From the NCBI GenBank assembly GCA_023313575.1, contig JAJTTP010000013.1:806001-870000 (forward strand): a stretch of DNA of 64,000 bases. The letters run 5' to 3'. Shown piece after piece: positions 3,001-24,593 of the stretch. Numbering within the stretch: position 1 is the first letter of the stretch; each line of letters begins with the position of its first letter. Under the pieces are notes generated by a model that worked only from the letters and a program-made list of their open reading frames with translations, did no database searches and had not been told where the DNA came from. Source of the stretch: Eutypella sp. D-1. Taxonomy: Eukaryota > Ascomycota > Sordariomycetes > Xylariales > Diatrypaceae. Position numbers and translations under genes: made by a program.

Positions 3001-3359
3001 TATTTTAACCCGATTATTATTTTTTTACATTTTATTAATTTTATGCATTAACTTTTTTTTTATATTAATAAAAAAAGATTAATAATCGATTTAATAACGT
3101 TAAGATAATTTTATAAAAATAAGGAAATTAATAATATTTAATAAATTTATAACATTTATAACTTTGCTAATATAATAATAAAGGTTACCTTTAATAAGGT
3201 TATAAGGATATTTATTAAAAATAAACAGATTATTTTAAAATTAAAAGGTTAAATAAAACGGGAATAAAATATTATTAATATTTATTATTTAATTATTTAT
3301 TTTACCTTTATTTTAATAGCATTTTATAATTAATTAATTACGAAAGAAAATAAAGTAAA

Positions 3360-3553
3360 TATTAGTTATTAATGGTTATTAGCATGGACCCATATACTAG
3401 TAGGAAGTACCTATCTCCTGTTTATATAAGGATACGGGCAAAGCCCGTATCCCTTTTAGATAGATAGATAGACCTTAGACCTGAATATAACACCAGTCTC
3501 GCCACCTTTCATTCTGTTATTATCTCTTTCTTTTACGTACGTACCTACTAACA
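3360..3553 (+). repeat. 3' LTR of copia copy A
   Basis: The 194-bp LTR begins TATTAG (mutated from TGTTGG, as seen unmutated at the outer end of the right LTR of copy B) and ends CTACTAACA. Its ends are inverted TGTTGG...CCAACA in the unmutated form. It carries TATATAA (3423-3429), a 10-3-10 hairpin (3430-3452) and TAGA/GATA repeats after it. The inner edge (3360-3385) is RIP-mutated but the outer part is nearly intact. The next bases, GCTAG, would be the right target duplication; its partner is outside the window. Confidence 0.85.
3423..3452 (+). promoter_or_regulatory. LTR TATA box followed by perfect hairpin
   Basis: TATATAA is followed at once by GGATACGGGC AAA GCCCGTATCC, a perfect inverted repeat with 10-bp arms and a 3-nt loop. 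The same pair occurs in the two LTRs of copy B (10206-10235 and 17103-17132, minus orientation). From LTR architecture I infer that the TATA box drives the element and the hairpin lies at or just past the transcript start. Confidence 0.6.
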
Positions 3554-4219
3554 GCTAGGGTAATATCATTCGTTTTATTTTCATTCACTTGTAACCTTTA
3601 AGGACATTACTTTTCATTTTAGCCGTATCTATTTATACATGGTACGTCGATTTTATAATAACTTTCATCTATCCAGTCAACCATACAGTTGGCGTTGTGT
3701 AATATTGCGGCCTTCTCATTTAGTATAACTCGTCCAAGGTGAAGTAGATCGCACTAGGTTTCAGATATATGCTCTTAGCGTCACACAACTTATGACATGT
3801 GTACAAGAAATGACATAAGCACATGAAGCTGACGCTAACAACATTTGACAAGTGGTTCAGCTTGAGGAAGTCAGGCAATAAAAGCCATGTTTACGAAGAT
3901 ATTCTAATACGGGATCATTCCGTGGTCTCAAATCTAGTGCCACTCAGGGGAAATGCCCATTGATTGGATGGATGCCACAGCGGAATAGAATAAGCGTATC
4001 TCGGTCAACTAAAGCGATTTCGGAACTTCCCCAAGTCTGTGTGTCACCTTGGGGGCAGCATCGGATATTTATATCTTCAGCTAATAGTAGTTACCATTTC
4101 AGTGAAATTGTTGTCAACTTTCCCGCACTCTACCTTACAGAATGTAAACAGTTCGAGAGAGCCTTGCCCTTGCTTGTCTAGCAGACGACCTTGCTACAGT
4201 CGCAATTATCGCCATCATC
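3554..4219. other. Intergenic, promoter side of the membrane-protein gene
   Basis: Base composition is normal and not RIP-mutated, in abrupt contrast with the LTR to its left. The short open frames here have no family resemblance. I see nothing else in it. Confidence 0.6.
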
Positions 4220-5509
4220 ATGGCAGCTCCCTATATCCTCCCTGCTACCTACCAGAGTCATACCATAACTTTTCCGGACTGGGTATCGATCTTTACGTTG
4301 GCTCTAGCACCGCTCATCGCACACATCGCGGCTGGAGTGCCTCAGCCATCATATCTCAGCACTCAGCGTCCAAGATGGCATGACCGCATCTGCTTGTACA
4401 ACCCGACGTCAATCATATGGAGATATGGAATGATCGCCGACCGTCGCATACGTGCGAGGTCCTGGGACCGCGTGAGCATCGCGGCGAGCAATGCCCTGTT
4501 CTGGACGCCTCGGGGGTGGGACGGCTCCGAGGCCATGGTCGACGCCTGCTCACCATACTTCACACATCTTCCCGAGCATGCCCATATTTCCCTCATCTCA
4601 CGCGAGATGGTGAAGACGGTTATTGTCACGCTGCAAGGATTGCAGGCACTAATACCGCTCGTCCGAGGCCTCAGCACCACCCGTGCGTCCGATAGCTTCG
4701 TGCACTGGGTAGGCGCCGACAATATCTTCTTTTCTTTGTCTATCCTGGGGTTATTACGACTCAACTGCGCGCTCTGGATAACAGACGACTTCTCGTTCCA
4801 GGCACCGCAGGTGCCCAAGCTCGATCATGTTCCTGCCGAAGACGCGGAGGCCGTTAGGGGATATTCTCTTGATAGCCTGCAACTCGAGGGCGCGCAGTCC
4901 TCCGTACAGTGCCAGGACAGGTTCAAGCCGACCAACTTCTGGGCTAGCCGAGCGTTCCGTGCGATGTACATCCTCCCTGTGCTGGGAATGTCAATGACAG
5001 TGGTATTGTACATGACACCGTGGACGAAGAACCGGACCGACACTTACGCTAACACGTTCACAACTTCTACCTTCTTGTTGAGTATATTCAGTCTAGTCTT
5101 GACTTCTGTCACGATCTCCATCTGCGCTTTCTACTTCGCGCGCGGTCACACCACAACCGTTGTTCCGTGTATATCTTCTCCCTGGTACAAGACTTATACC
5201 GTTATGCTATGGGGCCTTGGTCTTTTACTCTTTATTTTGGCCTGTATAGAGACGAAGAAGACCCCTTGTGGGAAGTATACCAGCGGGCCTGGCGAGGCTG
5301 CCGACATAGATGCGTGTTCAGCCAAGCATTCAAATATGGTTTTTGTTGCCCCAGATGGGCCCGAGTTCGGACTTGCTTCTAGAATTCCTAGTAACTCACA
5401 AAGCAATCAGAGGAGTGAATATTGGGTGTACAGCTTCCAAGGTACTTGTCTTGGCACTAAAACTAAGGACTTTGCTCAAAAGGTACAGCTGCTTGGCAAT
5501 GGAGAGTGA
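4220..5509 (+). CDS. Polytopic membrane protein, unknown function
   Basis: This is an intronless frame of 429 residues. At least five hydrophobic segments fit membrane helices: about residues 21-39 (ending LIAHIAAG), 168-187 (around FFSLSILGLL), 250-268 (YILPVLGMSM onward), 283-305 (FLLSIFSLVL onward) and 328-346 (VMLWGLGLLL onward). The stretch between the first two is polar and Trp/Arg-rich, and the tail of about 80 residues is polar. I do not recognise a family. Similar-looking multi-span proteins without assigned function are common in accessory regions of filamentous fungi. The start chosen is the first ATG of the frame that keeps the first helix. The gene converges with the PLAC8 gene, with 177 bp between the stops. 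It shows no RIP damage despite lying between two RIP-mutated elements. Confidence 0.7.
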   Translation: MAAPYILPATYQSHTITFPDWVSIFTLALAPLIAHIAAGVPQPSYLSTQRPRWHDRICLYNPTSIIWRYGMIADRRIRARSWDRVSIAASNALFWTPRGWDGSEAMVDACSPYFTHLPEHAHISLISREMVKTVIVTLQGLQALIPLVRGLSTTRASDSFVHWVGADNIFFSLSILGLLRLNCALWITDDFSFQAPQVPKLDHVPAEDAEAVRGYSLDSLQLEGAQSSVQCQDRFKPTNFWASRAFRAMYILPVLGMSMTVVLYMTPWTKNRTDTYANTFTTSTFLLSIFSLVLTSVTISICAFYFARGHTTTVVPCISSPWYKTYTVMLWGLGLLLFILACIETKKTPCGKYTSGPGEAADIDACSAKHSNMVFVAPDGPEFGLASRIPSNSQSNQRSEYWVYSFQGTCLGTKTKDFAQKVQLLGNGE

Positions 5510-5686
5510 TAGGGAAATAGGCGACTGCAAAATGTTTATGAGCTTTCTGGTATAATGCTACGGCGCTTATACGGAGATAGGGTCACAAGCCTCCACAACC
5601 CCTTTGAAATAAAACGACATTAACATTAATTATGAGATTAGATATTATGAAACCTCAGCAAGACCGTGTGTCTCTGACGTGACTTC

Positions 5687-6329
5687 TCAACGGGGGACAG
5701 TCATGCCTTCACTTGGCGACTGATAGGGCTGATAGATAGGCGTAGAAGTCAAGCGGCTGTTCACTTCCTTGTCCGCCTGTATGACCTGACAGCACTGACA
5801 CCAAAATGCGGCACAGCAGTCACCCACACCGCTGCCCGGTATGTCGAATCGTCTGCGTATGTCCCCCCTCTTGATCATGCTGAAGATCCAGCCACTCCCA
5901 AATAACGAGAGGAAGCCGTAGATAACGCAGTCGCTATTGAAATATTCGGGTGAAGGGTTGCTCGGGTCTTGAAGTCTAGAGGATGCTCGGCCAACAACTA
6001 TAACGGGGATGTAATCGTATCAGCACTCCATTCAATAGAATTTCGACGCCGGTGACGATGGATATATGATAGAATTCCAACTTACGTAGACACGGCACAC
6101 AGGTGCCCAATATACAACTCCCGCAGGGTGAGCAGTTGAAGAGACTATTCTGCCAGTCACCACCTCTAATCTCTCCCGCCGATGCTCCTCGATCATGTGT
6201 CGGTTGGTGGAGAGGGTAGGTCTCGTGGTTCCCCGTGACATTATGAGGGGAGTGTTCTTGTGACTCTGGAGCTGTATAGGCTGGAGGCCCAGAGGAATCG
6301 GCGTGCTTGAAATCAGCGGCGGCGGACAT
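5687..6329 (-). CDS. PLAC8 family Cys-rich protein
   Basis: Two exons, complement(6329..6086, 5997..5687), with an 88-bp intron (GTAAGT...ATAG), give 184 residues. The N terminus is polar and Pro/His-rich. The PLAC8 domain follows: WQNSLFNC, then CGSCILGTCVPCL before the splice, and LVGRASSRLQDP immediately after it. FNSDC, WIFSMIKRGDIRRRF, and the terminal GSGVGDCCAAFWCQCCQVIQ with KEV close the domain. The splice restores the C-x-P-C-L-(L)-x-G-R pattern typical of PLAC8, which supports the junction. Fungal PLAC8 proteins are small membrane-associated proteins. Plant and animal members act in cell size control and heavy-metal or calcium handling, but no function can be assigned to this one. 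A downstream acceptor would drop four residues. Confidence 0.85.
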
Positions 6330-7147
6330 TGTGGGCAGTGTTTTAAGGTCAACTGGTCTGGGCCTAACGAGTTGTTCTTGGGATGAAAGTGGCCGAATGA
6401 ATATTGGTGGTCACTGGTAAAAAGGGAAGAAAAAAGTCCCAGGATAACAAGTATCGGCGGAAGAAGTTTATATAAACATATATGAAATTAAAATCAGTAT
6501 ACATCTTTTCATACCCTTGTTAGTTTGCTTCTCATACCTATGTCGGTCTATCAATCCCTATGATGCTGTAGTCCATTCAAAGTGGCTTTCTTCCTTTAGA
6601 TCCCTTGCGCTAAACCAATTAGGGATAAGGGAGATCTTCACCCTTTTTTAGCGTCAGGGGGCGGGGCCTATGCTCCACTATGTTTACGAAAAATGCGTAT
6701 TCGCTCTACCATGTACCCAAATACCTAGGCCGATATTGACAGCTTTACGCACAAATCTGCAAAAAATGCCAGAGGCCGAGAGTCGCTGTTAGGCATGATC
6801 CCAGATACAAGCATATGATATTATTTAATTAAATAGACGCAAAGAAGTGTAGTGTATATTTGAGCTCATCTTGATGGCCCGTCACTATAGCCACTACATA
6901 CGTAAAGTGTAGCCCAAGAGCTGTAGATTCTTAGTGTAGTTACAAGGGCAATCTCAAACGAATATTATTACTTCCTGTAGCTAGGAACTTCTTGAAATGA
7001 ATACATATCGCATCATAAGCTTGAAATATACGCACATAGAAGGCCTTTTAGTTGACATATGGTAAATTTGCGTCTCTTATTATGGTGTGAACAACACAGC
7101 GGGTATCGATAGATATACACTTAATGTTTGACCTTGGACTGTCGGCT
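6330..7147. other. Intergenic between PLAC8 gene and Zn2Cys6 gene
   Basis: About 0.8 kb, containing the promoter of the PLAC8 gene and the 3' flank of the regulator gene. There is an AT-rich patch around 6470-6490. No coding sequence or RNA gene was recognised. Confidence 0.6.
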
Positions 7148-8646
7148 TCAATTATTCGAACATCCTGACCCGCTTTGCACTTGCCGAACCGGCCACTGTA
7201 TCCACTGGGAACATGGTGAAGATGCCAGGATCTCAGACACTGCCTCCACAATATGAGATGCCCATCCCCTTAGAAACCAGACTACTTCAAGTGTCTGAAG
7301 TAGAACCGCGAAGTGAGCGAGTATCGCAAGCGCGATGGGTTCCCTCCCTTTTAGACTATCCACAAAAGCATCCTCTAACCGATAAAGCCACACAAAAATG
7401 GTCTGAAACTTGACGTCTGCGACGGGTTTTGTCTCTGCTGAGCTCCCATATGTTTCCTGGAAACACCAGACAAGTGTCCCCGCTGTGCTCTGGTATATCT
7501 CCCTCATCCCATCAGGAGCTGCTGTAATGAGGCTGAAGAGGTCATTCAGAGCACCCTCCCACTCTATAGCCTTCGGCAAGATGTGGTTAACTTCACCTTG
7601 TTCGGTTCCTTCGTCTGGCTTCGCGGTTGGTCGAGAAGCGGTGTCGTTCGTAAGTTTGGCAACTACGTTACCAATCCCGAACGTCTCCACCACGATCCGA
7701 ACACCTCGGAAGAGCTCCCACCAAGCCACCTCCTGGTCTTCAGATACCACAAGCAGATGGCGAGGCCCAGGCTTCTTGGCCAGCGTACATACGCAGATGA
7801 GAATGGTGGATATGTATAACTCAGTGCAGTTCTCTTCGTTCAAGTTGGGCAAGGTTTGGTTTACTTGATGCAGCCCGACAGTCAAGTGCGCCTCTGCCCG
7901 TTCCACAAGCTCATCTGCCCGATTGGCTTCCTGTCTTGCTAGATGCAGCGCCGAAATAGCCAGAATCAAGTGAAGAACACTGTAATGGCAGAAAGCGAAA
8001 CGGGGAAGTTGATCCCGCCAAAATGGCGTGTCCTTTCCACTGAGTGCGACTGAGCTCATGTAGTGATGGAGTAGCTCCAGGTCTTCGACTCCCCATGGTA
8101 GATGTAATGGTCTTTCCAGGGAAGTAGCGGGAGAAGGAGTAAGAGAGAAACTTGACTCCTTAATCGTGGATGAGCTGGCGTCTGGTTCATCAATAGGGAG
8201 GTTGCTCTCTGCCGACAAAGCCGACCAGTCCTTGCGAGGCCGCTCCCTTTTTCTTGGCATGAAATTATGGGGTTCTGGGTTATCAGATGACCCACCGAAG
8301 GAGTAATTGCAGGTCAGCGAAAAACGCATGCAGTTTCCACAAGCAGGTTTACCCTCGTCGCACTATGGATAGTTAGCAAAGATCGAGCCCCAAGAGAGCA
8401 TCTTCACCGCCAACCACACAGGAAGAAGGGGGTAGCAAATATATAACAATTACATGTCAGTCTTACTTTTATTCTTCGTCGCTTACAATAGAGACATCCA
8501 TTTCGCGACTTGTTATGTGCCCTCCTAGTCCGTGTCTTTGTGTTGGATATTTGATTAGTTGTATCGGACACAGAGGGTATCGGCAACGTTCCTGAATCTT
8601 GTGTAGATTGATGGTTGATATTTTCACCATCAGCACAATTCGCCAT
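7148..8646 (-). CDS. Zn(II)2Cys6 transcription factor, sterol-uptake-control (UPC2)-like
   Basis: Two exons, complement(8646..8467, 8362..7148), with a 104-bp intron (GTAAGA...ATAG, phase 0), give 464 residues. The splice falls inside the zinc cluster, and only the joined product has all six cysteines: C51-x2-C54-x6-C61-x6-C68-x2-C71-x6-C78, preceded by the basic HNKSRNG. A middle region at about residues 140-200 (DLELLHHYMSSVAL, then WRDQLPRFAFCHYSVLHLIL and ALHLA) and a C-terminal QWIQWPV resemble the UPC2/C6 regulators found beside secondary-metabolite and sterol genes. It is nuclear and DNA-binding by family. Its target is unknown; nearby candidates are the rhodopsin-like gene and, before the copia insertion, the P450/SDR genes. 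Confidence 0.88.
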
Positions 8647-9824
8647 ATTTACAAATGAAACCAGAAAACTGACTCAGTCTCCGGTTTGTTAGCTGGTGAT
8701 TATGTGATTGTGTTTGGTTTAGAGAATAAGAGGTTGTATTGTGATTGTAGATGAAAGAAGTTAAAAAGGTACAAGTCTCCAGCCGCATTGTGGCGCAACA
8801 TACGCCCCCGTATGATTCCCCTTACGGACAGACAGAGTAATGAGTTGAGGCTACTCACTATGTACTGTGGGGTAGTTGTATGGATATATCGCACAGTAGG
8901 AGACTGTAGCGCTAATTTTAACAAATACACTATCTTTTGCCCTACCATCTCTATCCCTACAGCCTACCTATTTCTAGGCCTACAGTACATAACACTTTAG
9001 CGTCGAAGACCTATCGCCACTAAGTACTTAGGTATGGGTATGTAGGTACTAAGAACCACTAGTTATTTCCGCTTTGCTTTCTCTTAACATTAATTCAACA
9101 ACGCCTGCATATTAGTATCATTGGATACTGGGTTTCTCGGCAATCAAGTATCAAGTGTCGATGAAGGCAGAGGCGCAGCCTAGGCCCAGCGATACTTTCT
9201 GCGGCATACCAGCCAACCAGTATACGAACGGGTCCTATCCTGTTTCTGTTGTCTCCATCTTCTGCACGCGACAATTGATCACGCCCCTGCGTATATTATG
9301 ACTATAGCTCTGTTTCTTTGTTGAATAAGCAGATTGATTCTGATGCTGAAGATGATGAAACAAAACCTGTGAGTCTGTGACATTTCCTAGTAGTTACTCA
9401 GGCTAGACCGGCAAATGATAGAAGGAAATATTAAATCCCAATCCTAGACACCAGCGATTATTCATTAAGTTCTGTACCACTATCTCAAGCCTAACACCTT
9501 TTCTGAAGCCCAATAATCCCGGTCTTTGACTGGATCCAATTCTGGATTTGAGGTTCACTCGTGAGAAGTCTCGATTAGTCTTTGAGTGTTAACATCCTTC
9601 CGGAGTTGCGTATGATAATCCATATCCATGGATTCAAGGTCATAGTAATTAGACTGTGTATCGACTGTGTGACTTGCTGATCTTTTTAAGAAGCCACTCA
9701 AGTGGACTCTCTGAATGAATGACCTGACACCGGTCAGATAACCTTTGGGGATCCTAGGTAGCTGGTCGTTGGGAGTATTTGAAACTGGAGGAGGTATGTG
9801 TGCTTCACTGTCATGCCTCTTGCT
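8647..9824. other. Intergenic upstream of the regulator gene
   Basis: About 1.2 kb of unmutated sequence between the start of the Zn2Cys6 gene and the 3' end of the split rhodopsin-like gene. Short frames at 8700-9000 have no recognisable similarity. No RNA gene or repeat was seen. Confidence 0.55.
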
Positions 9825-10099
9825 CTAGGACGATCGTAGGTATCCCATAAGAGTGGAAACTAGCTTCATTTTATTTATAAAAGCAATCAATGGTGGCAAT
9901 ATGGGTAAGGAGCAACATATGTGACCGACAGTAAGCTCTATCGTGCTATTATATTTCAAGTCAGTTTCACTGGACTAAAACTGCATTCTTATGTAAGAGG
10001 TGTAGTTGGTAAATTAAGACAAGGCATTTGGGGAACTCACGCAAACGTGTTTGACATGGTCATTCCCCATGTATAGTCTAGGTCATGCAGTAACCTGAT

Positions 10100-10306
10100 T
10101 GTTGGTAGGTACGTACGTAAAGGAAAGAGATAACAAATAATAATAATGAAAGGTGGTAAGACTGGTGTTGTATTCTGGTCTAAGATCTATCTATCTATCT
10201 AAAAGGGATACGGGCAAAGCCCGTATCCTTATATAAACGGGAGATAAATATATAGGTATTACTTACTGGTATATAGGTCCATATTAATAATTATTAATAA
10301 TTAATA
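10100..10306 (-). repeat. 3' LTR of copia copy B
   Basis: The + strand reads TGTTGGTAGGTACGTACG at 10100 and ends ATTAATA at 10306 (mutated from ACCAACA). The outer 150 bp is unmutated and the inner 50 bp is RIP-mutated. It contains the hairpin at 10206-10228 and the TATA box at 10229-10235. The 5 bp before it, CTGAT, match those after the 5' LTR. Confidence 0.9.
10206..10235 (-). promoter_or_regulatory. LTR TATA box plus hairpin, copy B 3' LTR
   Basis: Same module as at 3423-3452 in reverse orientation: TATATAA on the minus strand at 10235-10229, then the 10-3-10 inverted repeat at 10228-10206, unmutated. Confidence 0.6.
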
Positions 10307-11101
10307 TTTATTTTATTTCTTTTTCGTAATTAACTAATTACGAAATATTATTAAGATAAAAAGTAAATAAATAAATGGATAAATAAATAATTAAGTAATA
10401 AACGTTAATAATATTATTTTTATTTTATTTATCTTTTTAATTTTAAATAAACGTTTTTATAACTTTATTAAAAATGGCTTTCGTTATAATATTAATAAGA
10501 TTATAAATGTTATAAATTTATTAAATATCGTTAATTTTTTTATTTTTATAAAATTACCGTAACGTTATCAGATTAATTATTAACCTTTTTTTATGAATAT
10601 TATTTATTTATATTAAATATTAATATTAAAAAAAAATCGGTGCATAAAATTAATAAAACGTAAAAAAGTAATAACCGGGTTAAAATAATATTTAACGTAT
10701 AATAAATAATATAACTTATATTAAATCCTTAAACCATATTATATATTTTATTAGCTAAAATATTACATATAATACGTTTATATTTAATAAATAATTAATA
10801 AATAATATTATTTTTAATATTAAGTTTATTATTATATCCTGGTTTTTTATTATTTAAAACGATAATATAACCGATTTACGAATTTATATTTTTATTATTA
10901 ACGAATAAATTATCGATAAAAATATATAATTTTAACTTAATAAGGTTTAATTCGATATAATTAAATCCGCGATCTTTATTATTTATTTATTATTTAATTT
11001 TAACGTTTAATGTTTTAATTCTTTTAAAACCGGGCTCGATATATTATGTTATTATGGAATAATCGAATACGGCCTTTAGTTAATAAATAAAAAAGATATA
11101 A

Positions 11102-11538
11102 TATAACGGCTGGTTTATTCCTAACTATTAATCCAGTCGAAGGGTTTATATTAGCAAAAGTGTTAAGGTTTTAAGTAATAAATAATCACGTTTAATAATA
11201 ATAAAAAAAAATACTTTAAGTAATTAAGTTATATTATAAATTAATAAGTTTAAAAACTATTTAAAAAAAAGGTAATAAACGTAATTATATATTATTTTAT
11301 ATCCTTTATTCCTAATACTGGAATATATGGTTATTATTAGATCGTTAAGATAATTAGCTATCCTAATTATCCTAGATTATTAGGATAATTAGCTATCCTG
11401 GCTATCCTTTTTATTACGTAACTCGAATATAACTAACCCACTGTGGTTAGGTTTTCTTAAAAGCCTCGTTTTTTCGAATAAGATCGTGATTTATTATTGG
11501 CCCCACTTGGCCTTTCGTAACCTGACCAGGTCATAACA
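11102..11538 (+). repeat. Solo LTR of a second retroelement family, nested in copy B
   Basis: The 437-bp insert begins TATAACGGCTGG (mutated TGTGACGG) and ends GGTCATAACA. It is flanked by a perfect 5-bp duplication TATAA (11097-11101 and 11539-11543). It is homologous, in opposite orientation, to 14553-14967, sharing the CGGCTGGTTTATTCCTAACT start. An internal GATAATTAGCTATCCT motif is repeated in 11346-11405 and is absent from the other copy. The TG...CA ends and 5-bp duplication identify an LTR, and no internal region accompanies it. It is less AT-converted than the surrounding element. Confidence 0.82.
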
Positions 11539-11585
11539 TATAAACTTTACGTATTTATTATTTAACGTATTTTTTTATTAACTCC

Positions 11586-11596
11586 GGGGGGGGGGG
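11586..11596. repeat. G11 homopolymer inside RIP-mutated DNA
   Basis: A run of 11 G stands in otherwise A/T-only sequence. The matching place in copy A (about 2580) reads GCGGAG, so the run is specific to copy B. Confidence 0.7.
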
Positions 11597-14264
11597 TATT
11601 TTTAAATTTAAAAGTTTTAATTTTTTAATTTACCCTTTTTATATAATAAATATTTTATATTTATAAACAATAATTTATAAATTATTAAAATTTTTAATCG
11701 ATCCGTTTTTTAATATTTTTTATAACCGTATTTTAATTTTTATTTTATTAAATACTTTGTTTTTTAAAATTAAAAAATTTATAATATTAATATTAAAAAT
11801 ATTATTTATTTAAAATCCCATAATCCCGAATAATTTTAAATCCGATATTAATAAATAAAGGCTAAATATTATAAATAAGTTTTAAATTAATAAATGCTAA
11901 ATTCCGTAAAGTTATATAATAATTTAACGATATATAATAACGTTTTTTTAAGGTATTTATTTTTTAATTTAATAAATACTTATATAAAAATAATCGGTTA
12001 TATCGGCGTTTTAAACTGGGTATAAGCTATAATAATGTTTTATATTATAATTTTTATTCTTTTAAACCGTAAAGTAAAAGTTATTATTAAAATAAAACGT
12101 TAATTGGTTTATTAAATAATAAGTACATAAATTATAATAAAATTTTATCGGGGTTTCCGTATTTTTAAATAATTAATTATAATTTTTTATATAATAATAA
12201 AATATTTTTACTTTTTATTTTATAAACTATTTTTAATTTAAAAATTATTATATTTTAATAATTAATAACGTCGTATATTTCGGGTTATAATATGCTTTTT
12301 TTTAAATAAAGCGTTTAATTTTTTAAAGTTAAAAGCTTTAAATAACTTTTTAAACGTTACGATCTTTTTATTTACTTTAAGCTTAAAAGTTAATGTTTTA
12401 TTATTTTTTTTTAAAATATTAACGTATTAAAAGTTTATACGTATTTTTTCGATTTTTTTATTAAAAATATTTATTAGTTTTTTTTTAATTAAATATAAGG
12501 ATTAACGTATAAGCTCCGAAAAATTATTATATTTTCCGTTACTTTTAAATCCACCGTTATATTTTTATTAATAACCGCGATAACTTTAAAAAGGTTTTTT
12601 TATCTTTTTTTTTCTTTATATATAAATATTTTATTATTTAAAAAAAAAGATCTTAAAAGTATTTTTTATATATTCGGGTTATTCCTAATATTTAACGCGT
12701 TTTAAATCGATTTTTATACCTTAATTTTTTTAACCTTTATTATAGCCTTTTATATTACTTAAGCTTTTTAAATTTATATAAAAATAAAAAGCAAATTTAT
12801 ATTAATTTAAAAATAAGCTTTAAAAATTAATAAAGTAAAAATAAAACCGTTAAAATTAATTATATCGTTAATTATTTTTATTATTATTTATAAACGTAAT
12901 AATTTTAATTTAATATTTTTAAAATTTTCCGAAATAAATTTATATGCTTTTCGGATAAAACCATAATACCTTTTTATTTTACCGATAAATTAATATACTT
13001 TTATTAATATTTAATAATAAATAATTCTGATAAAACGTGTTTTATTACGGAATTTAATATTATCGAAATTTATATTAACGTTATAAATAATAATATCCGG
13101 GGGTTTTAAATACGTATCGATTTAGCAGTTTTTAAATATATTTTATATTTGTTTAATTAATATATTCCTTATAAAACGTACTACTTAAAATCTTATAATT
13201 ATATCGATAATATAAAAAATATGTTTTTTATTTCAATATATTATATTAATAATTACCTTAAAATTAAAATTTATTTTTAAATTGTTTAAGTTAAATTTAA
13301 ACTTTTAAAATGCTTTATTTTTAATCTGGTAATAATAGTAAAATTTATTAATTTTTTTAAAAATGTCGATTTTAATATCGTATTTTACCTTATTTAAAAA
13401 GTTATATAATTTGCTAATAAATAAGTATCCGAAAAGTATATAAATTTTACGTAATTTTATTTCCGTAAAATAAATAATATTATTAAATTTAAACCATAAG
13501 TGCATTTATTTTTAAATAACGTTAACCGTTACGCCGTTTTTATTAATTAGTTAATTCGTAATATTATTAAAATATATACCGAATCGATTTATGTTTTTAA
13601 TTAATATTAAAAATAAGGTATTTATTTTTATTATATAAAAATTAATTTAGCTTAAAAAAGTATTAATAAAAATTATATTAAATAATTTAATACGGGGTTT
13701 ATTTTTAAAACGGATATTAGTTTTTTTTATATAATTTTTATCCATTTTGATTCGTTAATTAAGGTATTTTTTTATTAAAATAAAATATTATTCTTTTTTT
13801 ATAATGGATATTTTAATAATATTTATATTTAGCATAATTCTTTAAAACACGTTTTTAATATATTTATTTAAAATAAATATAATATCGGGTATATTTTGTA
13901 TCGTAAATAAAAAAAAGTTAATTCGGTGTTAAAAAGATTAATTAAATAAATAAGCAGTTATAAGATATTAATTATTATTTAAGTGGTTAAAATATTTCAC
14001 GGTAATCTTTTTTTTAAATTCCGAAACGGGCTTATTTTTTTTATATTTAATAAAGAAAACGGTATAACTATTATATCGGGATATTTCTTTAGCTTTTTAT
14101 TATGTCTTTACTTTTTTACGTTCCCGTTTTAAATATTTAATAAATTAATATCCTTTTTTTTTATATATTTAACATTTACGTTTTTATTACTTATCGGGCT
14201 TTTATTTTTAATAATATTTTTTATTTTTATCGTTTCGGTAATATTTATAATTAATATAAAAAAC

Positions 14265-14303
<39 letters not shown>

Positions 14304-14552
14304 ATATTAATTAGCTTTTTTTATAACTTTATAAATATTAATTAAGGCGCGGAGTTTATTTATTAAGTTTTTAAAGTAAGTAACAGGTTCGAAAAAAATA
14401 TATTAAAATTAAAAAATATATAGTAAATTCGGTATATAACGGCGATTAATTATTATTTTTTTCGGAAATCGGGCTTTAATGCTTTTTAATATAATAAAAA
14501 CTTATTAACTAAAATTTAAAGCATTTTTAAATTACTTTTACCGGCGTTTTTA

Positions 14553-14967
14553 TGTTATGGCCTGATTAGGCCAAGTGGGGGCTGGTAACCCTATTCGTTG
14601 GCGGTATTACCGGAAGAATAAAGACGTAAGCCAGCCACACTTAATAAGCCATAAAAAAAGCTATACATGGATCCGTTATAATTTATGGATCTAAAGGTAT
14701 TAATTAAATCCGTTACAATCTAAGGATTTAATATAATTACATATTTTAATATTAGGAATAAAGGATATAAATAATATATAGTTACGTTTATTACCTTTTT
14801 TTTAAATAGTTTTTAAGCTTATTAGTTTATAATATAATTTGGTTACTTAAAGCACCCTTTTTTTTGCTATTACTAAACGTGATTACTTATTGCTTAAAAC
14901 CCCCAGCACTCCTGTTAACATAAACCCTTTGACTGGACTAATAGTTAGGAATAAACCAGCCGTCACA
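14553..14967 (-). repeat. Solo LTR of the second family, opposite orientation, nested in copy B
   Basis: This 415-bp insert reads TGTTATGGCCTGATTAGG at its left end and ends GCCGTCACA. It is flanked by a perfect 5-bp duplication TTTTA (14548-14552 and 14968-14972). Its complement begins TGTGACGGCTGG and matches the insert at 11102. It keeps many G/C bases (for example around 14560-14640 and 14900-14960), so it has suffered far less RIP than the copia DNA around it and may be younger. Confidence 0.83.
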
Positions 14968-16996
14968 TTTTAGCTTTAATATTAAAAACAGTTATAAATA
15001 TTTAATTATAATAATATTATATTTTATTTTATTCGGTATTAAAATAACGTTTTATAATAAAGTATATATCGGTAAATATTAAATAATAAAAAACGTTATA
15101 AAAAAAGTATAATATTATACGTTTTAATAAAATAATTAAAAATACGGCGTAAAATTACGTTTATTAAATACTGTTAATATAATATATATTAAAAAAAAAA
15201 GCGGAATTTATTTTTTAAAATATCGTAAATATTTTTTATATAATTATATTCTTTATTTTAAACCTTTTTAAATTATTTTATAATAATCGATAAATATAAT
15301 TTATTTAAAATATTAATTAATAAAATAACATAATAAATTTATTTTTATTAATTATTAATAAATATAAAGGTCCGGTTTAATAATAAATTAAATCCCGGGG
15401 TAAGTTTAAATACCGTTTAAAAAATGGAATTATAACTTTTTAAAATTTTTACGGGCCCCGGTCTTTTATTTAAAGTAATTAACAGGGGAAAAAAAGGTAA
15501 TATTAAAAATTAATATTTTTTAAACTGTTTAAATTTTATAATATACAGGTTAATTTAAATCTTTTAAAAAGAAACGGTCCGGTTATCCTTTTTTATTATT
15601 AAATATAATTATTTAAAAAGTTATTAATTATTTCCCGTAAGTTAAAATAAATAACCCGGTATACCCGGGTAAAACGGATAAATTAAATAGCCGTAAAAAT
15701 ATCCCGAAAAGTAAAAATATTAATACGGATATTTTAAGTTAATATTCCCGGGAAAAGGTTATATAAATTAAATAAAAAAAGGAAAAAACAAATTACGTTA
15801 TTTACGCGGGAAAAAGTTATTATATAAACGGAATAAGTTAAAATTAGGTTTATTTTAAAAAAAAAGGGTTATTAAATATTATTAAAATATTTAATATTTT
15901 ATAAAATTTTAAACGTTCCGGGTTAAAACTTAAATCGGTACGCGGTTAATCCGGGGTAAAAATATATTAAAAAAAAGGTTAATTAAAAATATATTTTAAA
16001 AGTTAACGTAAAAAATTAAGTAATAAAATAAATAGGGTTATTATTTTATATAATATAATTTATACCGTTAAAGTTTTTAATTAATTATTTTAAAACGGTT
16101 TATATTAAAATTTACCGGACGGTTTTATAAATATCCCGAACGGAATAATAAAATATATAAATAATTTATAAAACTATAAATAAATTAGTCCGTATTTTAT
16201 ATTATAAACCGATATTTTTTATATTAATATATAAAACTATTTATTTATAATTATTTCGAATTTAATAAATTCTTATTCCGGGAGTTATTATTAAATAATA
16301 AAATTAATTAATTTAGTTATAAAATTTATATTATTTTTTTTAACGTATACGTTTTATTATATTAATGCCGTTTTTAAAATAAACCGGAGTTATTTAAATA
16401 TAATTTCGAAATTTATTTTTATAAATCCCCGAAAATGGTTTTAATATTTATTAAACGTTTTTTTTATTATTTAATTAATATCGGGGCGGTTATCGGTTAT
16501 TTTAAAATTATTAAAAGCAAATAATACCTATATAACCTTTTATTTAAAAATAGCTTATTAAAGGTTAATTTTTATTTATTTTATAACCGTAAGGTTAAAC
16601 GTTTAAATTAATAATATTATACGTTTTAAAATAAAGTTAAAAAATTAAGTAAAAACATTTATATTTTCCCGTTAAACGGTTTTTTTAATTTATAACCTTA
16701 TTTATTAATTCTTTCCTCCGTAAGGTCGCTTTTTAATAACTTTAAACGATAATCCGGCGTATTATTAATTATCCGATATAATAAATGGTTTTAAGGATAA
16801 TAACGATAATAATATTTATAATAATAATAAAAAAAGGTTATTATTTATTATAAGAATAAACGGGGGAAAATAATATTAATGTTAATGTTATAAATTTATT
16901 AATAATATTAACGCGAAAAGATTTTTAAATTATTATAATAATAATTTTTTTAACGTTATTAATTTATATTATTAACTATTTAATAATATTAATTAA

Positions 16997-17203
16997 TATT
17001 AATAAATACGTACGTAAAGGAAAAAAATAATAAATAATAATAATAAAAAATGGTAAAATTAATGTTATATTCTGGTTTAAAATTTATTTATTTATTTAAA
17101 AGGGATACGGGCAAAGCCCGTATCTTTATATAAACGGGAGATAGGTACATATGTACTGCCTACTGGTATGTGGGTCCATACCAGTGACCACTAACAACCA
17201 ACA
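16997..17203 (-). repeat. 5' LTR of copia copy B
   Basis: It starts TATTAATAAATACG (mutated TGTTGGTAGGTACG) and ends CTAACAACCAACA. The inner 100 bp is RIP-mutated and the outer 100 bp intact, the mirror image of the other LTR of this element. The hairpin is at 17103-17125 and the TATA box at 17126-17132. It is followed by CTGAT. Confidence 0.9.
17103..17132 (-). promoter_or_regulatory. LTR TATA box plus hairpin, copy B 5' LTR
   Basis: TATATAA on the minus strand at 17132-17126, then the inverted repeat 17125-17103. Nine bp of each arm are preserved, with one C-to-T change at the outermost pair. This would be the promoter copy that drove the element. Confidence 0.6.
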
Positions 17204-17868
17204 CTGATTCTGAAGACGCAAGTGAGAACGGAACACACACAGGCGCTGTTGTAGTTAGTATGCATTTTCAACGTGAAGTATGTTTCTACTGGTTTCAATT
17301 TCGAAGTGGTCGGGGTTAGACGAGTATTGTATTAGACATACAGTATGCCTGTCAGAAAGATGGCTGTTAAAATAATCTTCTTTCTCAGTGGGAGACAGAG
17401 TGAGATTATTTGTGTCAGTGGAATGAAGAGGATGACAAAGTCCGATATAATGCCAAATATGCCACGGGCAACAGAGACACTGAGTCCAAATGGTCCATAT
17501 TTTACCTGGGCTTGTTGCCATCCTCCGCCGCCAGGCCTTGGGATACCAACCACAAGTTCGGCAACTATGGTTGCTAAATAAAAGGATACAACAACACCGA
17601 TACAGGTGTAAATTGAGAAGGACACTTTTCGAACTGGGTTAAATATGCGGAGATAGAGCACTAAGAGGGATACTCTAACTAGCATTGTACTGACTGCACC
17701 GATGATTACGCAGGTGAAATTAATCTGAACATGTATTAGCGACGACCTGAATAGCAATAGCGTATCGTACCTTCAAGTAGGAGTCTGTTAGGAGGCTTAG
17801 TGGGATATCCCAAAGGTGCCTCCCATTTGGCCGATCAAGCACTGAATATATAAGCCAAGGTCCAAAGT

Positions 17869-18840
17869 CTGCATTTATATATCATTCTAAGCTGGGAGAT
17901 GGGAGTCATACATGATATACAAATACCGCAATTGGCAGTGATGCTTCCCTAATAAGAAAGTTAGACAACTGAATAGGCGGCAGATGACCAGGTGAACCAA
18001 CTGCGGCTGCAATATAGAGCACTGGAAAGTGAAGTTTAGTATATCGGTGCCAACTGTGTTACATAAATTTACCCATCTATATATCCGGAAGCACATAATT
18101 AGTGGAACTCTTAGATTTATGCCTACTTATGTAGCATAGTTAAGGTTTAGCCGGTATTTGTTTCTTATATCCAGAAAGAAGACGTCAAGTATGCAAACTG
18201 CATAGCATCAGTAGAGCAGGCCGGCCATGTTTGACCGTGCTGAATAGCCAACCTGCATGCCAACCTGCATGCCAGGCTGCATATCGTGTTGGTCCGTAAT
18301 TGATTGCTGACCGGGATGTTACACTACCTCTGCATACGCTCCCTGTCTCAGCGTTACAATAAGGGGCTGTTGCTACCCCATAATTAATTATAGACCAGTC
18401 AGAGCATGCAAATAGGGTATCCGGACGAACCAGACCTACAAAAATGCTAAGAAATTCATATGATGTCTCATTTCATTGCGCAGCTTGTCCCCTGTCGCTT
18501 TATTTTATACATGGGGTCCGCCGTGCAACTTCAACTAGTCCACTGCATCTTTGCCGGTTATCAATAAGGCTGGGTGATTTTGCACTACCCCGAAGCCTAG
18601 AATGACGAATGATACCCTTCCTTAGTGCGTTTAACACAAACCCTGCTCCTGCTTCCTCTCAATACTGAATTCCCTATCTATTATTCAGACGTCTTGTCTT
18701 TTCCGCTTCAATATCAATTACTTATCGATACTGTCCACGAGAACAGTTTCATCCTCTTATCTAGTATTCTTGATAAGATATATTTTCTATTTACCTAGGA
18801 GGCAGAGACTATATAGGCCTCTACGGCACGATATAGAAAA
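17869..18840. other. Gap between split rhodopsin-like gene and P450
   Basis: About 1 kb. The right part is the P450 promoter, with a TATA-like CTATATAGG at about 18809-18817. The left part may hold unresolved first exons of the rhodopsin-like gene; the minus frame 17887-18096 is not convincing. A 12-bp tandem repeat lies at 18247. Confidence 0.5.
18247..18282. repeat. 12-bp tandem repeat, three units
   Basis: GCCAACCTGCAT occurs twice, followed by GCCAGGCTGCAT, about 560 bp upstream of the P450 start. Confidence 0.8.
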
Positions 18841-20682
18841 ATGTTCAAGATTCTCTTCTCCGCTGCCGCCGCGCTACTGGCATCGTACCTTTACACAAGA
18901 CTGAGATATATTCGGATCTCTCAATATGCCCATATCCCGCAGTTCGAAAACCACCTCCTTTGGGGGCATCTCAAGCTCTTTGGCCAATTCATGCATCGTG
19001 GCACACACGATCGGCACCCAGGTATGGCATGCGATAATTATACTTCCATCGCGACACGAAGGGCATCATGTTCACTACAGTTCTAACAACTAAAAAGACA
19101 GAATTTTTGAGGAAATGTGGTTAGCAATGGGTCGTCCATCGATCATGCTTGTAGACCTTCGGCCTATCAACCCTCCCATGGTTCTTATTCCCAGTCATGA
19201 AATTGCCGAGCAGATATCCAAGACCTCAAAGCTTTTCCCCCTAAGCACCCCTAAATCCCCAACCTGGACGCATATGATCCCTATCATAGGGCAAACATCG
19301 ATTTTAGGCAAAGAGGTCAGTGCACGGACCCTACTGCCAATATCTACATACCACTAACTCCCACTCACAGGGTGCCGACTGGAAGGACCTCCGCAGGAGG
19401 TATAATCCAGGCTTCGCGACTCAACATCTGTGGAGCTTATTACCCTTGATTGTTGAGAAGATGAATCCGTTCTTGGACCACCTGGATCGATTTTCTGCAT
19501 CGGGAGAAGATTTCTCCCTCGAGACCCTAATCTCTAACTTGACTTTTGATGTTATCGGAGCCGCAGTTATGGAGGTCGATCTTAATGCCCAACAAATGGA
19601 CCGCTCAAAGCAAGGCGAAGTGATTAGACTGTTTGGGGAGCTTGTTCAGACATACAATGATGACAAGAATAATCTCCCGTGGTGGATTGTCCCATTTACC
19701 ACACTGAAGCGCAACCAATTAGCTCGACGTATCGACGTGCTGATAAAAGCTATTATAAAAAAGAAGTATACCGAGCTGAAAGAAGAGGCGGAGGGAAATA
19801 GGTCCCGCAGTATTGTCGCGCTCAGCTTCCGGGATACCGAGGCTCTGACACCACAGCTACTGTCAGAGACATCTGACCAAGTGCGCAGTTTCCTATTTGC
19901 AGGCCACGACACAAACACCAGCGCCCTGCAGTGGGTGTTCTACGAGTTGAGTCGCACTCCTCACGCACTCAAAGCGGTGCGCGATGAGCTCCATGAAATA
20001 TTGGGACCCGAGACAGATCCCAAGATGATATGTACTGTTCTCGCACAAAATGGAGAGCATCTTCTCCCACGCATGCATTACATCAATGCCGTGATGAAAG
20101 AGACGCTCCGTCTGCACCCGCCTGCCAGCACCGTCCGCATGACGGAGCCAGGAACAGGTTTCAAAATCCGCGAATCCAACGGCCAAGAATATTGTCTTGA
20201 CGGGCTCATAATGTACTCATGTCAGAGTATAATCCATCGGGACCCAGCCGTGTATGGGGAGACGGCGGACGACTGGATTCCCGAGCGATGGTTGGGTGAG
20301 GCCGCTAAGAACATACCGTCAAGTGCGTGGCGACCTTTTGAGAGGGGGCCAAGGAACTGTATCGGACTGGAACTTGCGAACTTGGAATCGCGCGTTATCG
20401 TCGCTATCGTGGCACGAAAGTACGACTTCTTCAAAACAGGATTAGGTGAATGCGCCACAGATGGTCAAGGTCTTCCTATCCTGAATGGGAAGGGACAGTA
20501 TAGCGTGAAGTCAGAATTATACAATGTGAGTCCAGTTTGCACTCCTCGCCTGCGTTACGGAGCTTTTGTAAAGAACCTTTTACTGACACTTTGTGACTTC
20601 CGGTTATGGCTAGACTCGGAGAATGACATCGAAGCCGGTGGATGGAACAAGAATGAAGGTTAAATTAGCGGTTAAGGCCTAG
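18841..20682 (+). CDS. Cytochrome P450 monooxygenase
   Basis: Four exons, join(18841..19021, 19098..19315, 19371..20525, 20614..20682), give 540 residues. The introns are 76, 55 and 88 bp, all GT-AG. The N terminus is a membrane anchor (LFSAAAALLASYLYTRL). The I-helix motif AGHDT is at 310-314, the K-helix E377-T-L-R380, and the haem-binding FERGPRNCIG has Cys at 463. The final intron is needed: reading through it loses the usual P450 end, while splicing gives TRRMTSKPVDGTRMKVKLA. The first junction gives DRHPDRIFEEM, a normal P450 sequence. It resembles the StcB/AflV-type P450s of fungal secondary metabolism. It is an ER-bound haem oxygenase needing a P450 reductase; the substrate is unknown. 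It is intact. The divergent dehydrogenase gene ends about 0.8 kb downstream. Confidence 0.9.
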
Positions 20683-21513
20683 ACGTTGGTATCCATAGAA
20701 TCATACAGTGGAGGCCGGAATGCCATGGTGTATGTAATAATGATGATACGGATATAGGTTGAAGGAAGTCGAAAACAACTAGCCGGAGATATTTGTGCGT
20801 AGCCTACCAATGAAATGATTCACGTAGTATGTTTTGAATAACATGCAATCTCGTCGCAGTATACGCGATACAGAGGTATCTCATGACACGAAAAGAATCA
20901 GTATTCTTAAGTCCTGTGTTAAGTACTAGTCCATTAGGATTGGGTCGCCGAAACCCCTATTTACCCCTATTAACTCGGGAAAATGACCCCACTCTGGATC
21001 CACAACCGAAAGGAATGCACAACTACCCTTCCCCTTGTCCAAATGACCTAGAAACGGTTATTTATATATGAAGCATAGCAGCCCGAAACAATCTCGTATG
21101 CGATGAAAGGGCTGTGATTGGATACATCGCTCAGACGATAGTCGATACAGGATGAACATCATAGTCTGACCAAGTTGTGATCTCGGAAAAGGTATGCTTT
21201 GGATGAGGCGCTTCTATTCATGTATTATCCGGTCCTGTTAAGGAATGCGGTTGCAGATATCCATAATAGCTTATTGTGGTGCGTCCCACGACCGGTACAG
21301 ATACAAGGAGACTACATACGAGCTTAAGCCTTCAGGGGTGATTGTTGGGAAGCCCCATAGAGGGCGGAGGGTAATGAAATAATGCTATCCGGACAGTCCG
21401 ATAAGGGCCTAATTATGTAAAGAAGAGCCGCCTCATGTGATTAGGTAGAGAACTATATAATTCGGAAAGAGGACGATATAGGCCATTTTAATCCACTCAC
21501 CCACCGCGATGCT
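20683..21513. other. Intergenic between convergent P450 and SDR genes
   Basis: About 0.8 kb holding the two 3' flanks. A 62-codon frame at 20883 has no resemblance to anything. Nothing else was seen. Confidence 0.6.
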
Positions 21514-22492
21514 CTATTCTTTCTCTACACGTAATGGCCCATTGATCGAATGTTCCAGGCCGCTTGGAGCACCATGCATCCTTATGAACCATGGTTCATA
21601 GGGTGTGACAGTCCTTCTAACCACGCCCCCGCTCTTATAGTCGGGTTCGTCATGAAAGTAATGCTGGTCATGGGCAGCTTCTACCGCTTGCCCCGTTCTC
21701 TCATTATACCTATCGTTCAAGAAGAGGTCATAAGCGTTCAACAAGCATTCCTTCGTCGTGAGATGCTCGTCAATATATGCTGCGCGGGAGTCTGACATGG
21801 CACCAGACACGTACCCATTCGGTAACACGGTATTGATGGTAATGTTCTCGTGCAGCATGGGCGCCATCGACCAGACCCAGTGCAGGGATGCTGCTTTCGC
21901 TGACGCGCCCTCGGGAAAGACTGGAAATGAGTACAATCCTATCACACTACCAGTGACAATAATATTCCCACCTTTTAGGATGGATGGAGGGTTATGTCTC
22001 ATGTAATGAACTGCCAGCTCAGTGCCATATATCACGCCTTTGAAGAGGACGTCTGTGCAACTGAGGTCTGGCTTGGGAGGGACATCATGGATATGTTTGG
22101 CCGCCGTCTTGTGTGCGAGGTTATATCGAGATCCCACGTCCACGATGCCAGCATTTGCAATGAAAACGTCTAGATGCTGCCACCTGTCCCATGATTCGCG
22201 GAAGAGTTTGACCTGGTCTTCATACGACGCCACGTCGCCTTGGACGAAAAGAACTGTCTTGCCCGTGGGGTCCAGATTGGAGGCAACGGCTTGCCCCTTG
22301 TCTGCATGACGACCTGAGATTGTTATACGATAGCCTCGACTATGCAAATGCTCTGCCAGATCAAGGCCGATACCGTTCTAGTATAGGTCAGAAAATAAAT
22401 CGCATGAATTTAAAATGGGGCTAGCAAAAACGAACCGTTCCTCCAGTAATGATCACTACTTTCCCGTGTTCTTGTGCAGCTGATAAATTCAT
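21514..22492 (-). CDS. Short-chain dehydrogenase/reductase, catalytic Tyr apparently missing
   Basis: Two exons, complement(22492..22436, 22377..21514), with a 58-bp intron (GTTCGT...CTAG, phase 0), give 306 residues. The junction rebuilds the cofactor motif TGGTNGIG (residues 16-23), which neither exon has alone. IANAG follows, and IIVTGSVIG carries the Ser of the SDR active site. Where the family has Y-x-x-x-K this protein reads FPEGASAKAAS: Lys is present, but the residue four before it is Gly, not Tyr. Overall it is nearest to NAD(P)-dependent 15-hydroxyprostaglandin-dehydrogenase-like SDRs of fungi. The donor GTTCGT is weak but no better one restores the motif. It converges with the P450 gene. 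It could be an inactive or neofunctionalised member. Confidence 0.8.
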
Positions 22493-24593
22493 GATGGCGA
22501 ATCATTTCAAGGCGTTATGTTTAAAACTGCTGCTCTCAAATGTGACCAAGAGTGAGCTGTCATATTTGGTTATGATAAATATAGGGTGGAAAGCAAACCC
22601 TATTTGACCTACTCAGATGAGGAACGGATGCTATCCAAACGCTATATATACAGAAACAAGTGCAGTATAAGGTAGCTTCGTTTCTCCATCATACGGGACA
22701 GAGCTCCGTTGGGTATAGCAGCAGTGTAAGATGAAGAAACATGGCCATTACGACATGGAGGCCGGCATTCTCTTAAGTCCGCTCTTAATATTTCCATTCT
22801 AGATATCTATGTCCGTAAACTCCGGTTTGATGACCTGATTACGCTGGATACCAGTAGGTCCTGGCCCACTTCCCTGACATGGAAGTTGAGGCGCATTGAA
22901 CGCTCATCATTCGGTCTGGGCCCGTATATGAGTGGAGATATACTGGGTTTCTGGTTGTTGAAGGAGGTCCCGAGATCTCGATACCTATTAGATAGCCTCT
23001 TAACGACCCAATTTCTTACATCAGGCGAATATTGTAGACGAAATGATGTTTAGTAGTTAGTTTTCAATAGCAAGGTGTGACAGAGCTCGTATCGCTGTTC
23101 TCCAGTATGCATCAAGGAGCGGTTTGCTACCGTTGACTATATAGTTATCATAATAGCCGAAGTGAAGTGTGATACAGAGTAGGTACAGGATTGGTCCATT
23201 ATGCAATAAGTAATTTAGTTAAAGAAGTATACCCCGGTAAGTAGGGGCGTAGGGCAGTTCATCGCCAGTGAAGTCGTTGCTAGCCCGAAGGATGGGATTT
23301 GTCATGACATGTTGCAGCAGCTTTCCATGATAGATGTGAAGACTGATCAGGTATCTCCGGCAAGTAGGCTGATGCAGATAATAAGGATCGCCTTTGGGAC
23401 ACGGCCAGTAATTTGAGACCACTTGAGGCTCATGAGAGTGGGACTCCGGAAGGGCGTTGGAAATCCTCAATGTCGTCTAGTAAAGAGACGGAAATTCTTT
23501 TTGCCCCTGGATCCTGTCGCAAACGTAGGGCATAGGCTGGCGCAAAATAGCTAAGAAACATCGAAGAGCCTATTGAAACTAAGACAAGTTGCTCGCTTTC
23601 GGCATGAATAGCGGAGCTAATGGATGTGGTTGCGGACATTTATTGACGTGAAGTGTGACACGGGATGTCGGGGGCGCCAAGAACCCCTATTCTGTGGGAT
23701 CGTCGGACCAATGACAGCGGCCGTGAGCTGGCCCAACACACGGAACCTACAAAAAGACGGACGGCAGGGAGAATCATCGAACACGGGACAGCAATTCATT
23801 TAACGCGTAGTAAATCAAATTGCATTTGCTTTCAGCTAGACGCGTTCTGTACAAACGGCGTTTGTCGAGTCCGACCCGTTTTTCTCCCGTGATATTGACG
23901 ATATCCACATCAATAAAAGCTAATACATACATAATTATTGGCGTTCCAAAACCCGCATATCGGCCGCAACGTGGCTGTTCTGTGCTTACGGCTGCGGCCT
24001 GAATCTATTGCAGTAGATAACCTACCATCAGGTAGTAGTGACAGGCTGGTGGCTGTAGTAGACGTGGTCGCGTTACTTACCACAGTAAGGTACTAGAGTA
24101 GTCGTCGCATTAACATCCCGTATGTCACGGCTCGGGTTGAGTCTACCCTGGTAACTTTCCGGTTTTAAACGTAGCAAAAAGAATATATCCAAGAAGTAGC
24201 AATGGACTCGCAAATCTGCCCCGGGCGTAGAAGTATCATGCATAGTTCATCACGACTTCCTTAAGCCAGTGGTCGCACCTCCGCTATGGACGTAAGCTTG
24301 CGGTAACCCACCCCTTTCACTCAATACCGTACGGATGACGACAGCACGACAGCACCTCTGGGAAAGACAAGATAGCATCCGGTTGCTCTAAAGAAGGCGT
24401 CGGGGAATGGGATCGCGACAGAAAGGAATGAGAAGTCTTTCGGGAATGTGAAAGACGGCTGGACGGACCCCTTAATTATTTCAACGTCAATAAAGCCCTG
24501 TGTTGGCGACCCCATTAATTATTTCCTATTCGATATAATTATTGATAGCATCACAGTACACGATAGAAAGGCATCATTAATACACCGATCGAC
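22493..24593. other. Long gap with decayed coding fragments
   Basis: About 2.1 kb. On the minus strand, frames 23639-23430 (starting MSATTSISSAI, with LVLVSIGSSMFLSYFAPAYA) and 23470-23219 overlap in different phases and look like one broken gene. I could not name the family or find splice sites that join them. The rest appears to be promoter and spacer. Confidence 0.35.

What the first reader, a model, noticed from the sequence alone, without database searches (positions are those of the whole stretch)
9825..17868. A copia element split a rhodopsin-family gene, and the cut can be closed to the base
Minus-strand coding sequence reading ACVCSVLTCVFRI stops at the right LTR (17204). Beyond the left LTR (10094) it resumes as RLLHDLDYTWGM, followed by a proper GTGAGT donor and a further family-like exon (9945-9825). 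Removing the element and one CTGAT copy restores a continuous exon of 96 nt with correct phase at both splice sites. Two gene halves 7.1 kb apart would be annotated as unrelated scraps. The flanking exons carry no other clear lesion, so the insertion may be the inactivating event.
Basis: partly seen in the sequence, partly recalled or inferred. Interest (0 to 1): 0.75.

Follow-up and report, generated by a model that had tools for sequence, protein, structure and literature searches.

The report
Fungal receptor gene split by retrotransposon
A fungal membrane-receptor gene was cut in two by a jumping element that the fungus later mutated beyond use; the cut can be read to the base, but the gene carries other damage too, so the insertion may not be what killed it.

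Summary
The core observation is right. A 7.1-kb Ty1/copia element (10100-17203; 207-bp LTRs, 5-bp duplication CTGAT) lies in one exon of a minus-strand PF20684 'fungal rhodopsin' (Pth11-like) gene. Of 13 homologues found, the eight long enough to test (Daldinia, Astrocystis, Xylaria) match both halves in order. The split exon measures 42 + 54 = 96 nt; of three related genes examined in the same genome, two have an uncut 96-nt exon with the same phases. A 93%-identical public fragment (P0011) reads across the site, so an insertion-free allele very probably exists in a close relative.

Two corrections. The gene does not end at 9825: TAG 9827-9825 is an in-frame stop, and the frame continues to TGA 9557-9555, matching the homologues' tail. 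The first exon was not found. So 'no other clear lesion' is wrong. P0011 also implies a frameshift in the insertion-free relative, so the receptor may have been decaying anyway.

The element runs in the gene's own sense and is heavily RIP-mutated except at the outer LTR edges, which keeps the junctions readable. A clear new case of a known kind of event.

The parts
17771..17868 (-). exon A (GRHLWD motif; aligns to about residues 83-110 of homologue P0001)
   Evidence: tblastn E 1.9e-9 to 1.9e-14 in 7 of 13 homologues; start at 17868 rests on a splice site only
17725..17770 (-). 46-nt intron, GTACGA...TTCAG
   Evidence: sequence
17342..17724 (-). exon B, core of the Fung_rhodopsin domain
   Evidence: PF20684 67.8 bits, profile 58-183; 69% to P0001 residues 108-240
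17246..17341 (-). intron GTATGT...TACTAAC...CAG
   Evidence: sequence
17204..17245 (-). exon C, first 42 nt of the split exon, including the right CTGAT copy (17204-17208)
10100..17203 (-). Ty1/copia LTR retrotransposon, heavily RIP-mutated, coding strand minus (same sense as the gene)
   Evidence: LTR pair and duplication; tblastn with the open frame of family copy L063
16997..17203 (-). right LTR, at the element's transcriptional 5' end, 207 bp
10100..10306 (-). left LTR, at the element's transcriptional 3' end, 207 bp
10095..10099 (.). left copy of the target duplication CTGAT (right copy 17204-17208)
10041..10094 (-). exon D, last 54 nt of the split exon
9946..10040 (-). intron GTGAGT...AATAG
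   Evidence: sequence
9555..9945 (-). exon E with the C-terminal tail; in-frame TAG at 9827-9825; frame ends at TGA 9557-9555
11101..11534 (.). small repeat nested in the element
   Evidence: absent from the family copy at 7-3553; inverted match to 14721-14983
14546..14983 (.). second copy of that small repeat, opposite orientation

Best explanation
A Ty1/copia retrotransposon integrated in the sense orientation into the 96-nt exon that encodes the end of TM6 and the TM6-TM7 loop of a Pth11-like 7TM receptor gene (PF20684). Integrase made the 5-bp CTGAT duplication. RIP then mutated the body of the element but spared the outer LTR edges and, as far as could be tested, the gene. The insertion separates TM7 and the C-terminal tail from TM3-TM6. 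The locus is now a multiply damaged pseudogene. Shown here: one gene in two halves, the duplication, the element's class (through a family copy) and sense, the RIP pattern, the nonsense codon, and protein evidence for an insertion-free allele in a relative. Inferred: the role of integrase, the order of events, the helix numbering and the loss of function.
For: Homologues match both halves in order. Uncut 96-nt exons with the same phases occur in L060 and L041 of the same genome; L059 has 102 nt (splice ends picked by eye). P0011 ends in SES+GHCMT: SES is the last reading of the right piece, and GYCMT+stop starts at 10095 on the left piece, the only match of at least 4 of 5 residues plus stop among 127,966 six-frame positions of the window. 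Copia class: family copy L063 has RVT_2 and, upstream of it, a weaker gag_pre-integrs match; its frame matches the window element on the minus strand in order from 13673 to 10446, best E 2.5e-102, with no match in window 20001-64000. RIP: 42 of 43 LTR differences are RIP-type transitions, and the element's RIP index is high (composite 0.58-1.08) while exons A, B and E lie between -0.45 and -0.05.
Against: No Pfam domain is recognisable in the three minus frames of the two window stretches scanned, and the own-genome RVT_2 search (2 matches) does not list the window copy, so its class rests on L063, whose gag_pre-integrs match is under Pfam's cut-off. No DNA of P0011 could be read; the empty site is inferred from its protein. 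The stretch just right of the element (17209-17341) has a RIP index of 0.67, which is not rare in this window but does not exclude slight leakage.
Confidence: 0.93

Rival explanations
1. The insertion is a passenger: the receptor was already decaying in this lineage, and the element landed in a gene that no longer mattered.
For: In-frame TAG at 9827; exon 1 not found; P0011, without the insertion, changes frame near the end of exon B: two residues stand where the window has 14 nt, net 8 nt shorter.
Against: Exons A, B, C and D have open frames and usable splice sites. The TAG lies after the 7TM domain and might be tolerated. P0011 is a fragment from assembled reads and could contain an error. 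Whether the relative shares the TAG is unknown (one search found nothing).
Confidence: 0.45
2. The insertion was the inactivating event and the other damage followed.
For: The element removes TM7 and the tail; exon B keeps an open frame and 69% identity to Daldinia grandis; the LTRs differ by only one change in 207 bp that is not of RIP type, so by that clock the insertion is not very old.
Against: The other lesions cannot be ordered, and the insertion-free relative appears broken too.
Confidence: 0.4
3. A shortened receptor is still made from one half of the locus.
For: Exons A to C are open in frame.
Against: Exon 1, with the start codon and TM1-TM2 of the homologues, was not found; without the left half there is no TM7.
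Confidence: 0.05
4. The two halves are unrelated genes that happen to flank the element.
For: None found.
Against: In-order match of the 8 homologues that can test it, 96-nt exon, P0011.
Confidence: 0.01

Closest known systems
Pth11-related GPCRs / PF20684 Fung_rhodopsin
   Same: Profile match of exon B, GxH motif in exon A, helix pattern in the homologue (low confidence); large family in this genome (158 exon-level matches, 150 of 201 candidates scored)
   Different: Broken gene: the LxxxR and DD motifs lie in the exon that was not found; no function shown
Ty1/copia LTR retrotransposons of filamentous fungi
   Same: TG..CA LTRs, 5-bp duplication, RVT_2 downstream of a gag_pre-integrs-like stretch in a family copy
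   Different: No recognisable domain left in this copy; it carries two nested small repeats
Gene loss around transposable elements in RIP-competent fungi, e.g. Cladosporium fulvum (PMC10823647, passages seen)
   Same: Ty1/Copia copies, RIP, nine genes disrupted by an insertion in coding sequence (at least one of these is a tandem duplication, not a transposon)
   Different: There Avr9 was lost by a translocation possibly using copia copies; here it is a simple insertion in a receptor exon

Membership tests
PF20684 Fung_rhodopsin | profile match above the curated cut-off | tested here: met
   67.8 bits against cut-off 27 on exon B
PF20684 Fung_rhodopsin | complete domain in one reading unit | tested here: not met
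   N-terminal part not found; C-terminal part separated by the element
Pth11-related GPCR | seven transmembrane helices | tested here: inconclusive
   model of homologue P0001 has seven helices of 17 or more residues but mean pLDDT 43; hydropathy gives seven hydrophobic groups; the window gene lacks exon 1
Pth11-related GPCR | motifs LxxxR, DD, GxH/D (PMC5526305, passages seen) | tested here: inconclusive
   GRH is in exon A; in the homologues the other two lie in the part not found here
Ty1/copia | LTRs TG..CA with 5-bp target duplication | tested here: met
   (shared with other LTR elements, so not sufficient)
Ty1/copia | RVT_2-type reverse transcriptase after the gag/integrase part | tested here: inconclusive
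   seen in family copy L063 (RVT_2 35.5 bits; gag_pre-integrs 22.5 bits, under its cut-off of 28.4); the window copy is collinear with it but shows no domain itself

The most novel reading that the evidence does not exclude
This receptor is being lost in parallel across one clade of Xylariales by independent lesions (element, nonsense codon and missing first exon here; a frameshift in an insertion-free relative), so the copia insertion marks relaxed selection rather than causing the loss.
Probability: 0.4. Interest if true: 0.4.

Novelty: new member of a known kind. Interest (0 to 1): 0.33.

Why it matters
Exon-by-exon annotation could list two scraps 7 kb apart. The case shows how such a pair can be shown to be one gene without rebuilding it: homologues that match both pieces in order, exon length in paralogues, and an insertion-free relative. 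Because RIP left the outer LTR edges alone, the insertion site is readable to the base, which would help in dating and counting such losses in RIP-competent fungi.

Tried and rejected
- Search for sister fragments across the TAG with the left piece: 1 candidate, none at E <= 0.001. So it is unknown whether the relative shares the TAG.

- N-terminal exon: profile of residues 1-82 of six homologues against 17856-18841: best -1.8 bits, reached by 132 of 500 shuffles (455 of the 500 gave a score). A weak match at 18011-17907 is therefore treated as chance. An own-genome search with P0001 listed four places on the window's contig, none of them N-terminal to residue 83.

- Intron over the TAG: rejected, because the homologues keep nearly the same length around it (one or two residues' difference).

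- RIP leaking into the gene: 17209-17341 has an index of 0.67; 167 of 1584 windows of that length in 24001-64000 reach it, 18 of 215 in 4001-9500 and 5 of 246 in 17725-24000. The left 149 bp (index 0.04) are reached by 481 of 1587, 51 of 215 and 44 of 246. Not claimed.

- Structure of homologue P0001 (8-row alignment): mean pLDDT 43, used only for the helix pattern; no fold search made.

- First run of the LTR edge comparison did not turn eight minus-strand loci round; repeated.

- Papers: none of the library holds all of Pth11, retrotransposon insertion and repeat-induced point mutation, or all of Pth11-related, transposon, insertion and disrupted. Searches gave background. Two papers were opened, for passages only (PMC10823647; PMC5526305); the others were seen in listings with the start of the abstract.

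Full report
Where it lies. The window is part of a 48.5-Mb genome in 72 contigs. The MED1 protein of the window (48979-51240) has two unnamed closest hits (99% and 77%); the closest hit with a name is Monosporascus sp. CRB-8-3 (66%), followed by many names that I know as Xylariales (best 120 of 334 hits listed, 7991 candidates scored).

The element. Self-comparison and direct reading give a pair of 207-bp LTRs at 10100-10306 and 16997-17203, TG at the outer left end and CA at the outer right end, flanked by CTGAT on both sides. The LTRs differ at 43 of 207 sites. Of these, 42 are RIP-type transitions, and they are fully polarised: 23 in positions 1-138, all with A/T in the right copy, and 19 in positions 139-207, all with A/T in the left copy; one difference is a transversion. 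So RIP spared the outer edge of each LTR. In 11 further copies matching the right LTR, 13 to 19 of the 19 outer G/C sites are kept, against 1 to 10 of the 23 inner ones. These 11 are the best matches of 40 scored (200 candidates), so the sample leans towards this pattern. The element is 7,104 bp long. Its own domains are unrecognisable in the stretches scanned. A less mutated family copy, L063, carries RVT_2 and, more weakly and upstream of it, gag_pre-integrs; its frame matches the window element in order on the minus strand. The element therefore runs in the same sense as the gene.

One gene in two halves. Exon B matches PF20684 at 67.8 bits. A search with the right piece alone gave 13 homologues among 166 candidates. 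Eight (P0001-P0008) extend past the insertion point, and all eight match the left piece: exon E and tail at E 2.6e-19 or better in 8 of 8, exon D at E below 0.05 in 5 of 8. Exon C is reached by 3 of 13 right-piece alignments in the gene's frame. The other five hits are short. Three related genes of the same genome, read at the equivalent exon with splice ends picked by eye, have 96, 96 and 102 nt and the same phases; the window's two pieces measure 42 and 54 nt, CTGAT counted once. The best other match of exon B in the genome is 33% identical, so no close second copy confuses the picture.

An insertion-free relative. P0011 (143 aa; 7 member sequences, 2 contigs) is 93% identical to exon B over 86 residues. 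It then continues in other frames through the intron (with a further one-base shift there) and exon C, and ends in SES-GHCMT. SES is the last reading of the right piece before the element, and GYCMT followed by a stop begins at 10095 on the left piece; it is the only place among 127,966 six-frame positions with at least 4 of 5 residues and the stop. The own genome holds no second such locus at E <= 0.001. So a close relative very probably has the site without the element. Between its first two matched stretches P0011 has two residues where the window has 14 nt, a net 8 nt less, which shifts the frame of exon B. If this is not an assembly error, that copy is broken as well.

The TAG at 9827-9825 is not the gene's end. 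The frame continues for 89 codons to TGA 9557-9555, and 8 of 8 homologues align on past the TAG (P0006 ends sooner, but beyond it). The homologue P0001 has 82 residues beyond that point. The first exon is not found upstream. The locus therefore has at least two lesions, the insertion and the nonsense codon, and probably a lost or decayed first exon.

How it works. Integration into an exon, between TM6 and TM7 by the helix pattern of the homologue (low confidence; hydropathy roughly agrees), splits the receptor; that an integrase did it is inferred from the LTRs and the duplication. RIP, which acts on repeats (established knowledge), then mutated the element.

Novelty. Gene disruption by insertions in RIP-competent fungi is known; [quoted passage not shown] Two searches for a Pth11-type receptor split in this way found no paper; the library lacks most subscription journals.

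Noticed in passing
window 7-3553: A second copy of the same copia family in opposite orientation, 76-80% identical over two stretches, RIP-mutated, running to the window's left end; the 6.5 kb between the two copies has ordinary GC.
   Followed up: partly
11101-11534 and 14546-14983: Two copies of a roughly 410-440-bp repeat nested in the element in opposite orientations; very common in this genome (701 candidates at first look, 40 of them scored, 51 matches listed, the best 88-92% identical).
   Followed up: partly
L045-L055: RIP left most G/C sites in the outer 70 bp of the LTR next to higher-GC flanking DNA in 11 of 11 further copies examined (best matches to the right LTR, so a leaning sample).
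   Followed up: partly
7148-8329, 19320-20663, 21514-22347, 24891-25820: Fungal_trans_2 regulator, cytochrome P450, short-chain dehydrogenase and alpha/beta hydrolase around the receptor; could be a small metabolic cluster.
   Followed up: no
G000 genome: 158 exon-level PF20684 matches (150 of 201 candidates scored), a large receptor-like family; many matched stretches hold stops, some of which may be introns.
   Followed up: no
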